From Apostichopus japonicus (Eukaryota; Echinodermata; Holothuroidea; Aspidochirotida; Stichopodidae), in NCBI RefSeq assembly GCF_037975245.1, contig NC_092581.1, forward strand, positions 1,128,501 through 1,192,500: a stretch of 64,000 bases of DNA. The letters are read 5' to 3'. Below, piece by piece: positions 12,878-63,771 of this stretch (position 1 is the stretch's first letter; each line of letters begins with the position of its first letter). A program made the position numbers and the translations under genes. The notes beneath the pieces are model-generated. The model was given only the letters and a program-made list of their open reading frames with translations. It was not told where the DNA came from and ran no database searches.

Positions 12878-13236
12878 TTATTCCGAACCATCCAGAGCGG
12901 TGACATCTTCGTAACTCGGTGGAGGAGATGTCTGCGACGAATCTTGTCTCTGAGGGAAGAGAGCTATGTAAGTCGGAGGAAACAAATCATTTGTTTCTCT
13001 GAGGTGACTGCTTTCTTCTTCTGTAAATGGAACTGCTTCTTCATCCTCTCCTCTGTTGAGTGGATAACCGTTCCTTGAACCTCTCAAGGGGAGCTCTGCA
13101 GGTGGCAGGGGAGGTTCCATAAATGTATTTTCTCTCCTATTCTTCGGACAGAACAGCAGCATTAGAAGGATGCCTACAGCCAATGCGAACAATCCCAAAG
13201 CTACACCGACTAATGCACCTGAACTCAGTCTGGAGG
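12878..13236 (-). CDS. SRCR gene A exon 6: transmembrane helix and cytosolic tail
   Basis: A 359 nt terminal exon after a CT/GA-rich acceptor tract. It encodes the helix LVGVALGLFALAVGILLMLL followed by a KNRR stop-transfer motif and an acidic, proline-rich tail. The tail holds FPPTY and, near the C-terminus, PPPSYEDV. Both are PPxY class WW-domain ligands by pattern. Ends TAA. Confidence 0.85.
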
Positions 13237-61500: not shown

Positions 61501-63771
61501 CTACATTTATAATAAATACCGTGTGTATATCTGGTTTGTTAATCCTGTAACCAGATCGTTGCGATTAATGGAAAATTGTGTCCGACGTAAGTATAAAATC
61601 CACTTACGAGTCTCAAATCACCGTCTGCTCTTAATGGGTAAGGTGTTCTTATACTTGCCATTCGAAGAAATAGTAAATGTACACCTTTTAATCCGACTAA
61701 CTCATTGCAATATACATATATGCATATTTTCCTACTAATTAATTCAACTACGGGTCACGAAAATCTTCAGTCTTGGTGAAATGGTGAATTGAATTACATT
61801 CTGTCTGGAACAATGAGACAATTCATGCCTCCACATCTTTAAAAAGTCACGTCACTCATGTGAAAATACTTAACACGACGTTTTATGCGACATATATATC
61901 CTTCTTGAAATATAATAGAATCTTTCTATAGGCAAGTGTTATTCAGGAATATGTAATGGCAGAAGTACAACATACTCTTTCAAAAGTTGACTTTCACCAT
62001 GCCCATCTGGTACAATGTGGTTCTATCTTGGTTATCTTGCGAATGTCTATAGGTAACCATTCGGTTGTGTTGATTTTTGTCACCGAATGAACTCAAGTAT
62101 GTATTACATGTGTTGGCCGTATATAACCTTAGTAAATATTGACGGTAATATCATGACTCTGTCCAATTAATGTATTATGTATTTATTTTGTTTTGATACA
62201 TTTTCAACAAAAAAACCTTTACTGAGGGCGCTCGCCGGATACAGAACTTACCCAAAAGACACGTAACACCAGCGTCTTCCGAATGGTAGCAAAAGCGTGT
62301 GTCCCATCCTGTATATGAGCACTGTAGCCAATACGATTCGTCTCCATCACAACCTGTTGTTTTCATTATCGACCCATTTCCTTCACCAAAGTATGCCCGG
62401 TCGTAAAGTCTGGACACACCACTATATCCTAGCTGCCTGCATACAACTTCGGCGTCCTCCCACACCCATAAATCGTCACAAATTGTTCCCCACTCGTTGT
62501 TGTAAAAAATCTCGACCCTTCCTTCCTGTTGAAACAATCCACCAGAGAGCCGAACATCGCCGTACCCTGCTCCTATACAAATGAATGTAAGCAACTGTTA
62601 CGAACAAAAATGTACAGCGTGACGTTATCATGGAACGCCTTTCTAACAATTTTTGAGAGTGATACTGCCGTGAAATTATTAAGCAAGTGGGTCTGTAATA
62701 GTTTTATTAATTTGTGCCTTCTCTGATTGTTAGTCGCTGTTAATCACCTTCCAAATAATGGCTTAGTGTCTTTTATGAAACACACATTTCAGAAATAGCG
62801 AAATAAAGGATGTCGGGGATTGTCACAAGGTAACAAGATGACGGTGTTTTTCCTTACCGTCACTTGAACATCTTACTCCAGCGTCTTCTGTGTGTTGACA
62901 GTTATGCACGAACAAGCCTGGGTTAGGACACTCCAACAATGTCGATTCCCATCCACCGCAATTTACATCATCCAAAATAATTGGATCACTTCCAGCACCA
63001 AAGTAAGCAGAGTCTAAAGCTTCGGCAGACCCTTTAAACCCAAGCTGCCGACAAACGACGGCTGCATCTGCAGTGTCCCACTCATCGTCGCAGACCGTAT
63101 ACCACCCTCCACCATAGAAAAGTTCCACACGCCCTTCGTATGATGACCCTCCTATGAGTCTGACATCACCGTCTATGCGTTAGGGAGGAAAATACAACCA
63201 TTTACTGTATGACAATTTGTAAACATTACAGTTAAGCACCTCCAAAGGAGAAAAATTAAAAATGTGAAATGTGTGGTATTTGACCATTGAAAGTGTCGTT
63301 AGTGCTGGACTATGATACTACACACAAAGGTCTGGTGTGATAACAAGAAATTTAATACTCATGTCATTTTAATTTCTTTCATTTTACGATATGCTTTGTA
63401 GTAATAAAAAATGGCATAAATGGTGCTTTGTAGTACAAAAAAATGGCATAAATGACTGCGCTTCGATAGTATTTTACCTCTATTGATTCCTTATGAGGCA
63501 CTTAGTCACTTTTTTCGTGAGGTTTTAGCTTTTTCTCACGATTTGATATCCTTTTGCGTCTCGATCTAAATATAATGTGACAGAAATGAGAGAAACTGCA
63601 GTTTAGAACACTGTATCTCTATAGAGCTACATTTAACCGTCATGGTACTAAATAGACACTTTAATGTAATAGGATATAACTCTTACCTTGTCCCGCTGCT
63701 ACTCCAAAGCACAGAAAGAATAACCCAGTTACTAACGTTAATACGCTTTTGCTCATACTCCAGATACCCAT
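55128..63771 (-). CDS. SRCR gene C: type I membrane receptor with five SRCR domains
   Basis: Seven coding exons: 63771-63687, 63172-62858, 62572-62252, 60850-60518, 58747-58421, 57431-57117 and 55576-55128. All introns are phase 1; the total is 2145 nt (about 714 aa), closing at TAG. Order: signal peptide (1-28), SRCR1-5 (29-133, 134-240, 241-351, 352-460, 461-565), TM helix (about 571-592) and a tail of about 120 residues. SRCR1-4 have six cysteines, SRCR5 seven. The architecture and each domain match gene B. The likely role is surface recognition and uptake of ligands; the ligand is unknown. The tail carries PPSYDD and NPMYY (an NPxY-type endocytosis signal), then many prolines and glutamines. 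Confidence 0.86.
57117..57431 (-). CDS. SRCR gene C exon 6: SRCR domain 5 with a seventh cysteine
   Basis: A 315 nt phase 1-1 exon: [62 protein letters not shown] and GSVSVRC. DELCDC has two cysteines where gene B has one (QLAYC). Donor GTGAGT. Confidence 0.9.
57735..58040. mobile_element. hAT-like MITE (306 bp) in an intron of SRCR gene C
   Basis: Ends CAGGCGCGTAGCCAAG and CTCGCTACGCGCCTG, the same family as 17119-17409 but in the opposite orientation (core reads GGTGGCGCTACGCTTAGATA). Flanks TAGGAGGG and TACTAGGG match only 6 of 8, consistent with an older insertion. Confidence 0.8.
58421..58747 (-). CDS. SRCR gene C exon 5: SRCR domain 4
   Basis: A 327 nt phase 1-1 exon: [58 protein letters not shown] and HGEDVGVTC. 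Donor GTTAGT. Confidence 0.9.
58960..60492. mobile_element. hAT-like composite element (1533 bp) in an intron of SRCR gene C
   Basis: Ends CAGCGACGTAGCCAGG and CCTGGCTACGTCCCTG are inverted repeats with one mismatch, flanked by the perfect 8 bp repeat ATGCCTGT (58952-58959 and 60493-60500). Its left 200 bp is the family core region. A further family-type end (TACTGGCTACGCCCCTG) near 59771-59787 hints at a nested copy. No transposase frame seen. It fills most of the intron between SRCR3 and SRCR4. Confidence 0.85.
60518..60850 (-). CDS. SRCR gene C exon 4: SRCR domain 3
   Basis: A 333 nt phase 1-1 exon: [50 protein letters not shown] and HSEDAAVTC. Donor GTATGC; a transposon was inserted about 18 bp beyond it. 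Confidence 0.9.
62252..62572 (-). CDS. SRCR gene C exon 3: SRCR domain 2
   Basis: A 321 nt phase 1-1 exon: [50 protein letters not shown] and HSEDAGVTC. Six cysteines. Donor GTAAGT. Confidence 0.9.
62858..63172 (-). CDS. SRCR gene C exon 2: SRCR domain 1
   Basis: A 315 nt phase 1-1 exon: [52 protein letters not shown] and HTEDAGVRC. Six cysteines. Donor GTAAGG. Confidence 0.9.
63687..63771 (-). CDS. SRCR gene C exon 1: signal peptide
   Basis: ATG gives [20 protein letters not shown] then CFGVAAGQ, a textbook signal peptide with likely cleavage after AAG or GVA-A. A second in-frame Met at residue 6 would also work. Donor CAAG then GTAAGA, phase 1. Confidence 0.88.

What the first reader, a model, noticed from the sequence alone, without database searches (positions are those of the whole stretch)
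12878..63771. Three SRCR receptor genes with one shared architecture, all on the minus strand
Genes A, B and C each encode signal peptide, 4-5 one-exon SRCR domains, a TM helix and a PPxY tail. B and C correspond domain by domain (SRCR2 with WLQC, SRCR3 with WFWxDC, SRCR4 with CDGSE, SRCR5 with PRLVDG). The oxidase gene separates A from B/C. A clustered, type I, multi-SRCR receptor family with a fixed tail motif could be an innate recognition system. SRCR expansions are known in echinoderms and amphioxus; this particular tail-linked family is my inference.
Basis: partly seen in the sequence, partly recalled or inferred. Interest (0 to 1): 0.72.

Follow-up and report, generated by a model that had tools for sequence, protein, structure and literature searches.

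The report
Tail-linked multi-SRCR receptor gene family
This stretch of an animal genome holds a small cluster of cell-surface scavenger-type receptors whose outer modules vary while the part next to the membrane and the inner tail stay mostly the same, probably serving to bind microbes or debris and take them into the cell.

Summary
Genes A, B and C are minus-strand type I receptor genes with 4, 5 and 5 single-exon SRCR domains, 14 of 14 above Pfam's cut-off. Conceptual splicing gives open frames of 588, 696 and 711 aa, phase-1 introns throughout. A hydroxyacid-oxidase-like gene lies between A and B. B and C pair by position: best of 120 pairings; 5 of 5 pairs in one tree, 4 of 5 and 2 of 5 in two others. 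The window's own genome (671.6 Mb) has at least 150 SRCR exons. Eight further close copies of the last SRCR domain stand apart from the other matches scored. All 10 copies have a B-like TM/tail exon downstream, one in a gene D beside C. Distal domains are gained, lost or multiplied. PPxY is usual, not fixed: 8 of 13 B-like tails. Gene A is a distant relative: its last domain groups with the family; its tail has no relative found. Tandem SRCR expansions are known (PMC10855680). The base with two conserved tail blocks is a new variant. Function is inferred.

The parts
20811..20901 (-). Gene A, exon 1: probable signal peptide (MLWKSSGNITF...ILHVTSG)
   Evidence: hydrophobic ATG exon with phase-1 donor CAG|GTAAGT; in frame with the rest. 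Least certain exon.
18152..18478 (-). Gene A SRCR domain 1 (one exon)
   Evidence: PF00530 E 1e-31; has residues fit for both ligand-type cation sites
16518..16850 (-). Gene A SRCR domain 2 (one exon)
   Evidence: PF00530 E 1.1e-16
15413..15751 (-). Gene A SRCR domain 3 (one exon); lacks the usual first cysteine of the six
   Evidence: PF00530 E 2.1e-18; alignment
14187..14504 (-). Gene A SRCR domain 4, relative of the membrane-proximal domain 5 of B and C
   Evidence: PF00530 E 1.1e-15; clade with B5/C5 97/99, 97/100 against 12 other genome SRCRs
12878..13236 (-). Gene A TM helix and tail, with FPPTY and PPPSYEDV
   Evidence: mean hydropathy of best 19 residues 2.85; no relative in the genome beyond itself at E below 8
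52547..52628 (-). Gene B, exon 1: probable signal peptide (MNFRIYAFLALEILRCLLTCGYLVNAQ)
   Evidence: in frame
51501..51821 (-). Gene B SRCR1
   Evidence: PF00530 E 2.8e-31
50295..50618 (-). Gene B SRCR2 (WLQC)
   Evidence: PF00530 E 1.4e-27
49415..49750 (-). Gene B SRCR3 (WFWQDC)
   Evidence: PF00530 E 1.4e-26
46544..46876 (-). Gene B SRCR4 (CDGSE)
   Evidence: PF00530 E 4.4e-31
45642..45965 (-). Gene B SRCR5 (PRLVDG), membrane-proximal type
   Evidence: PF00530 E 3e-12
44078..44448 (-). Gene B TM helix and tail with AAPPSYNDA
   Evidence: mean hydropathy of best 19 residues 2.5; tail homologous to C, 0 of 3000 shuffles; matches 13 places in the genome, itself included
63687..63771 (-). Gene C, exon 1: probable signal peptide (ATG at 63771 or 63756)
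62858..63172 (-). Gene C SRCR1
   Evidence: PF00530 E 1e-29
62252..62572 (-). Gene C SRCR2 (WLQC)
   Evidence: PF00530 E 1.7e-26
60518..60850 (-). Gene C SRCR3 (WFWHDC)
   Evidence: PF00530 E 3.3e-26
58421..58747 (-). Gene C SRCR4 (CDGSE)
   Evidence: PF00530 E 6.9e-33
57117..57431 (-). Gene C SRCR5 (PRLVDG), membrane-proximal type; seven cysteines
   Evidence: PF00530 E 2.3e-15; AlphaFold2 model pLDDT 92; PDB SRCR matches with TM-score by query 0.76-0.87 in the 50 rows shown
55128..55582 (-). Gene C TM helix and tail with [13 protein letters not shown] and [20 protein letters not shown]
28629..33759 (-). Hydroxyacid-oxidase-like gene (FMN_dh) between A and B; span of the exon matches found, ends not modelled; the upper end rests on a weak match (10.6 bits)
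   Evidence: PF01070 E 1.9e-32 and 1.5e-26 in two frames; best PDB match hydroxyacid oxidase 1

Best explanation
A, B and C belong to a family of type I scavenger-type receptors spread by old and recent gene duplication in an animal genome rich in SRCR genes. The membrane-proximal SRCR domain (d5), the TM helix and the tail travel together as a base (A has a relative of d5 but its own tail). The distal single-exon SRCR domains (d0 to d4) are gained, lost or multiplied by position, which symmetric phase-1 exons allow without breaking the frame. Likely working: the outer domains d0, d1 and d4 bind anionic microbial or self ligands through the two cation sites described in SALSA/DMBT1; d2 keeps one site, d3 little, and d5 neither, so d5 probably serves as a stalk. 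The tail would then recruit WW-domain proteins, most likely Nedd4-type ubiquitin ligases, through PPxY, for endocytosis or turnover of bound receptor. Shown here: gene anatomy, homology by position, linkage of d5 and tail, and the pattern of cation-site residues. Inferred: ligand class, WW/Nedd4 partner, endocytosis, immune role.
For: In-frame spliced models of all three genes. 14 of 14 SRCR domains by Pfam; d5 of C models as an SRCR fold. Position groups in a tree of 45 domains from nine genes and best-of-120 pairing. Searching the own genome with C's d5 gives 10 matches, itself included, at E 8.5e-26 or better and then a drop to 6.6e-13 (150 scored of 611 candidates); B's tail finds 13 places, one beside each of those 10. 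Cation-site residues by position, A kept apart: ligand site 3 complete in 16 of 19 d0/d1/d4 domains, 0 of 16 d2/d3, 0 of 8 d5; site 2 exact in 14 of 19, 9 of 16 and 0 of 8. Mutating site-2 and site-3 residues abolished ligand binding in DMBT1 (PMC7043408, passages). PPSY is kept in the tails of C, D, g2218, g2232, g10418 and g10511, with PPRY in a C11 copy, and the block around it is more conserved than most of the tail.
Against: PPxY is absent or unreachable in 5 of the 13 B-like tails (QPSY in two, a stop just before it in two, none in the weakest match at C21:20280607), so it is not indispensable. A second tail block ([14 protein letters not shown]) is conserved at least as well and its partner is unknown. 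Of the 13 tail matches only 5 have E below 0.002, itself included; the other 8 lie at 0.013 to 1.06. No expression, ligand or partner data. A's cytoplasmic tail is not significantly similar to those of B and C, and only 1 of A's 4 domains keeps the cation-site residues. The cation-site columns rest on residue numbers from one paper and on my recall of where they lie in the DMBT1 sequence; DMBT1 itself was not aligned.
Confidence: 0.55

Rival explanations
1. Adhesion or tissue-organising receptors: the SRCR ectodomain binds a host protein and the PPxY tail connects to WW proteins of junctions or of the Hippo pathway rather than to endocytic ligases.
For: PPxY or PY motifs bind WW domains of several classes, such as NEDD4, YAP and KIBRA (abstract starts in search listings). 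SRCR domains also bind host proteins, e.g. CD6 with CD166 (passage in PMC7043408).
Against: Distal domains are gained, lost and multiplied between paralogs, which fits variable recognition better than one fixed host partner. Not decisive.
Confidence: 0.2
2. Ordinary scavenger/clearance receptors of gut or coelomic cells, in which PPxY merely sets turnover and the copies are redundant; no diversified recognition system.
For: SRCR genes of nine metazoan species are highly expressed in digestive-gland tissues (PMC10855680, section 2.3). Some copies have decayed tails. B/C divergence is under purifying selection overall.
Against: Old, strongly diverged paralogs retained with intact frames.
Confidence: 0.2
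3. The exons do not form three genes as modelled (for example fusion of B and C, or A being part of another gene).
For: No RNA evidence was available; A's first exon and its 2.3 kb first intron are the weakest call.
Against: Each array starts with a probable signal-peptide exon and ends with a TM/tail exon carrying a stop, frames join at every junction, and the same order of d5 then tail recurs at eight other places in the genome.
Confidence: 0.05

Closest known systems
Expanded SRCR superfamily of sea urchin (Strongylocentrotus purpuratus) and other invertebrates (PMC10855680)
   Same: Hundreds of genes, many in tandem arrays; each SRCR domain in a single exon, with one exception, in the sea urchin array studied; many genes with SRCR domains only; domain-level gain and loss (abstract, section 4 part 1 and passages seen).
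   Different: The parts seen describe no tail-linked subfamily and no PPxY or other tail motif; my search for SRCR with PPxY found 0 papers.
CD163 / WC1 family of vertebrates
   Same: Receptors with arrays of SRCR domains; CD163 (M130) chains are the best PDB sequence matches to C4 and C5.
   Different: Six cysteines per domain here (13 of 14; C5 has seven) against eight in group B. CD163 and WC1 as type I group B receptors, and their tails, are recalled and were not compared here.
SALSA/DMBT1 SRCR domains (PMC7043408)
   Same: Residues fit for the dual cation site of ligand binding recur at d0, d1 and d4.
   Different: DMBT1/SALSA is described as a secreted protein (abstract starts); these genes encode a TM helix and tail.
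Sponge SRCR genes
   Same: SRCR arrays in an animal group with large expansions.
   Different: In the sponge studied each SRCR domain is mostly encoded by three exons (PMC10855680); a sponge-like contig found in a symbiont MAG shows SRCR domains interrupted by introns (L055). Here each of the 14 domains is one exon.
Shisa and other small PPxY-tailed membrane proteins (recalled)
   Same: TM helix followed by a proline-rich tail with PPxY.
   Different: No SRCR domains; resemblance recalled from memory, not tested.

Membership tests
SRCR superfamily | SRCR domain above the curated Pfam cut-off | tested here: met
   14 of 14 domains above 26.1 bits for PF00530
SRCR group A | Six conserved cysteines per domain | tested here: met
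   13 of 14 window domains have six cysteines, C5 has seven; in A_d3 one conserved cysteine is replaced and another gained
SRCR group B | Eight conserved cysteines per domain | tested here: not met
   0 of 14 window domains have eight
SRCR group B | Each domain encoded by one exon (recalled as a vertebrate rule) | tested here: met
   14 of 14 single exons with phase-1 introns; so exon structure and cysteine count point to different groups
Type I membrane receptor | Signal peptide, ectodomain, one TM helix, cytoplasmic tail | tested here: met
   hydrophobicity and splice sites; no dedicated signal-peptide or TM predictor was available
PPxY/WW-ligand proteins | PPxY in the cytoplasmic tail | tested here: met
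   present in A, B and C; in 8 of the 13 B-like tails in the genome
PPxY/WW-ligand proteins | Binding to a WW domain | not testable with these tools
   needs a binding assay
   10 of 10 close d5 copies have a B-like tail downstream on the same strand (sequences)
   d5 relation supported; tail similarity weak: 182 and 190 of 3000 shuffles reach the cytoplasmic score, 128 and 13 of 3000 the whole-exon score against B and C
Innate immune recognition system | Expression in immune cells, induction by microbes, binding of microbial ligands | not testable with these tools
   no expression or binding data on hand

The most novel reading that the evidence does not exclude
A recognition system built as a constant base (d5 SRCR, TM, two-block tail with PPxY) carrying a combinatorially varied set of distal SRCR domains, coupled to WW/Nedd4-type ubiquitin handling, with copies that have shed the PPxY step acting as decoys or long-lived surface receptors.
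Probability: 0.25. Interest if true: 0.6.

Novelty: new variant of a known kind. Interest (0 to 1): 0.42.

Why it matters
Hundreds of SRCR genes in some invertebrates have been counted; how such receptors signal or are internalised was not described in the papers I saw. A subfamily recognisable by a conserved tail gives a handle: the tail can be tested for WW partners, and the position-specific cation sites say which domains to test for ligands. Beyond that the locus is an ordinary instance of SRCR expansion.

Tried and rejected
Further SRCR exons in the window: none beyond the 14. Other genes: Pfam scans in three frames found only the oxidase on the minus strand at 26001-35998; nothing at E 0.01 or better on both strands of 1-9999, on the plus strand of 10000-18481, 18500-28500, 34000-44000 and 44001-64000, or on the minus strand of 18480-28000 and 34500-44000. 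Not scanned with Pfam: the plus strand of 28501-33999, and the minus strand of 10000-18479 and 44001-64000 outside the SRCR and tail frames. No Rfam match or tRNA. IMG/VR scan with the 14-domain alignment: 12 pattern matches, none confirmed. GTDB genome contigs: 57 loci; L055 and L056 have the broken-up exons of a sponge-like host, the rest, by title and long open frames, look bacterial; 0 of 84 SRCR-bearing open frames in 56 of these loci (24 frames in L055 and L056) has PPxY after the SRCR domain.

Trees: the mixture-model tree of 14 domains gave near-zero end branches for C5 and B2 and joined A_d4 with B5 and A_d2 with B2 weakly. It groups B3/C3 and B4/C4 (91/96, 81/85) but leaves B1/C1, B2/C2 and B5/C5 unpaired; holding B1/C1 together costs nothing (p-AU 0.479). 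The LG+G4 tree of 14 pairs all five, bootstrap 83-93, none starred; the LG+G4 tree without A_d2, A_d3 and A_d4 pairs four and leaves B1/C1 unpaired. In the 45-domain tree B1/C1, B3/C3, B4/C4 and B5/C5 fall with their own positions; d2 is the grade around the rest. dS is saturated in four of five B/C pairs and 4.5 in the other, so the duplication could not be dated. The species was not identified.

Rows dropped before counts: searches left out g10454 and C11:10888 and, in g10418, the two fragments of d4; one search also left out A_d2 and A_d3. One search offered 17 other SRCR loci, 12 passed, and it held 17 of the family's domains (B2 and B3 not among them). One search compared C with six PPxY-bearing tails, several of them near copies of each other, and kept B apart; the two QPSY and two stop-bearing tails were not in it, and its blocks were drawn after the alignment had been seen.

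Paper searches: SRCR with PPxY, 0 papers; SRCR with Nedd4, 9 papers, 8 listed, none on an SRCR tail by title and start of abstract; in the first 20, 15 and 10 rows of wider term sets no title or abstract start links SRCR receptors with PPxY. This covers open-licence PMC only.
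Full report
What is there. The window is 64 kb of an animal genome, placed at C21:1128501-1192500 of an unnamed assembly of 671.6 Mb in 35 contigs. On the minus strand lie 14 exons that each encode one SRCR domain, all above Pfam's cut-off. With a profile made from them no fifteenth was found in the window. For every exon an AG and a GT could be chosen so that its length is divisible by 3 and both introns are phase 1. Adding one hydrophobic ATG exon and one TM/tail exon per gene gives three uninterrupted proteins: A 588 aa with four SRCR domains, B 696 aa with five, C 711 aa with five. 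The signal-peptide exons rest on hydrophobicity and splice sites.

Between A and B lies a hydroxyacid-oxidase-like gene, also on the minus strand. FMN_dh matches lie in two frames, down to about 28.6 kb, and the best PDB matches are hydroxyacid oxidase 1, the uppermost stretch (33.8 kb) by a weak match. B and C are head to tail, about 2.5 kb apart.

B and C as positional duplicates. Identity of like positions is 58-60%, and the pairing by position is the best of all 120 pairings. With LG+G4 and all 14 domains all five pairs appear, bootstrap 83-93, none starred; without three divergent domains of A four of five appear. With the mixture model only the pairs at positions 3 and 4 appear, and the pair at position 1 is neither shown nor rejected (p-AU 0.479). 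Synonymous sites are at or near saturation (pS 0.75-0.90) while pN is 0.25-0.27: the duplication is old and both genes have been kept under purifying selection. The tails of B and C are homologous (0 of 3000 shuffles reach the score).

The family in the genome. The SRCR family search scored 150 exons out of 712 candidates, all over the cut-off, so the true number may be higher. With C's last domain as query (150 scored of 611 candidates), ten places score at E 8.5e-26 or better with at least 51% identity, C itself included; the eleventh falls to 6.6e-13. The ten are B and C, five others on C21 and three on C11. B's tail as query gives 13 places: one on the same strand and within about 4 kb downstream of each of the ten, and three more on C21 (2.232, 10.395 and 20.281 Mb). 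By E-value only five of the 13 are below 0.002 (B, C, D, 2.220 and 2.232 Mb); the others lie at 0.013 to 1.06. Reading the sequences shows that all but the one at 20.281 Mb are plain relatives of C's tail. One of the ten, gene D, has its tail about 6 kb beyond the window, so the cluster reads A, oxidase, B, C, D.

Variable arrays on a constant base. I read the exons of the eight non-window genes and built a tree of 45 domains from A, B, C and six of the eight. Domains group by position: d5 of all genes together (95/92, with A_d4 outside it at 100/99), d3 with B3 and C3 (96/92), d1 with B1 and C1 (82/91), d4 with B4 and C4 (85/91), and a d0 (96/98) not found in B and C. d2 is not a clade on this midpoint-rooted tree but the grade around the others. 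Arrays differ: g2218 has four d2-like domains and no d1 or d3; g10418 and g10511 lack d2; C11:7327 lacks d1. Stretches read were 10 kb on each side (9 kb on one), so an absent first domain could lie outside; splice phases of these genes were not checked.

The tail. Twelve tails aligned share, B least and two cut short by a stop, [14 protein letters not shown] and, a few residues on, AAPPSYNDV..N..YYPQH. Against six PPxY-bearing tails C keeps on average 4.7 of 6 identities in the first block and 3.7 in the second, 1.6-2.5 elsewhere. PPxY is in frame in B, C, D, g2218, g2232, g10418 and g10511 (PPSY) and C11:4343 (PPRY), that is 8 of the 13 B-like tails. g10454 and g10395 read QPSY. C11:7327 and C11:10888 have a stop codon shortly before the motif. 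The weak match at 20.281 Mb has none. So the motif is usual, not fixed.

Gene A. A's last domain groups with d5 in four trees, one of them with 12 other SRCR domains of this genome (99/100, 97/99, 100/99, 97/100), though on a long branch; by pairwise score it sits among the generic SRCRs (30% identity, E 3.5e-10). Its tail exon finds no relative in the genome, and its cytoplasmic similarity to B and C is not significant. I treat A as a distant relative with an independently evolved or strongly diverged tail.

How it most likely works. The SALSA/DMBT1 study places two surface cation sites for ligand binding on SRCR domains and shows loss of binding on mutation (PMC7043408, passages). Mapped by alignment, with the place of the residues in DMBT1 recalled rather than aligned, site 3 is complete in 16 of 19 d0/d1/d4 domains, in 0 of 16 d2/d3 and in 0 of 8 d5; site 2 is exact in 14 of 19, 9 of 16 and 0 of 8; in A both are kept in 1 of 4 domains. 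d5 of C still models as a well-formed SRCR fold (pLDDT 92; PDB matches). This suggests ligand binding by d0, d1 and d4 and a structural role for d5. The tail would act through WW domains, most likely Nedd4-type ligases, for internalisation or turnover. The ligand, the partner and the immune role are inference.

What is known. Large SRCR expansions with tandem arrays, single-exon SRCR domains in a sea urchin array and high expression in digestive tissue are described (PMC10855680: abstract, section 4 part 1 and passages). Echinoderm SRCR proteins of coelomocytes, and one that acts as an opsonin or in bacterial clearance, are mentioned in PMC13409769 and PMC7308585 (passages). No paper with SRCR and PPxY was found. 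The finding is a new variant of a known kind: the class and its expansion are known; the tail-linked subfamily with a constant base and position-specific cation sites is what the searches did not find.

Noticed in passing
window 12392-12864: A 19-bp minisatellite (25 copies, 98% matches) begins 13 bases after the stop codon of gene A, so it may form part of its 3' UTR.
   Followed up: no
window 29515-30333: A 51-bp minisatellite (16 copies, 95% matches) lies in the oxidase gene, next to one of its exons.
   Followed up: no
window 36238-38268 and 38607-41057: Large arrays of diverged short tandem repeats between the oxidase gene and B, partly as inverted copies.
   Followed up: no
window 22024-22190 and 59013-59179; 17203-17332 and 57806-57935: Dispersed inverted repeats of 130-167 nt at 89-95% complementarity, likely a mobile element in several copies.
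   Followed up: no
G000 C11:7323680 and C11:10884494: Two near-identical family copies share a stop codon in the tail just before the PPxY stretch; either tail-truncated receptors or decaying duplicates.
   Followed up: partly
G000 C11:4.34, 7.33 and 10.89 Mb: Three close copies of one gene lie megabases apart on one contig, unlike the clustered copies on C21.
   Followed up: no
L001-L054, L057: Long bacterial-looking open frames with SRCR domains in metagenome-assembled genomes, among them many titled Myxococcota or Gammaproteobacteria.
   Followed up: no
L055, L056: SRCR-bearing exons with introns (an EGF-like exon beside them in L055) in contigs filed under a Cycloclasticus symbiont of a poecilosclerid sponge: probably host DNA in the bacterial assembly.
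   Followed up: partly
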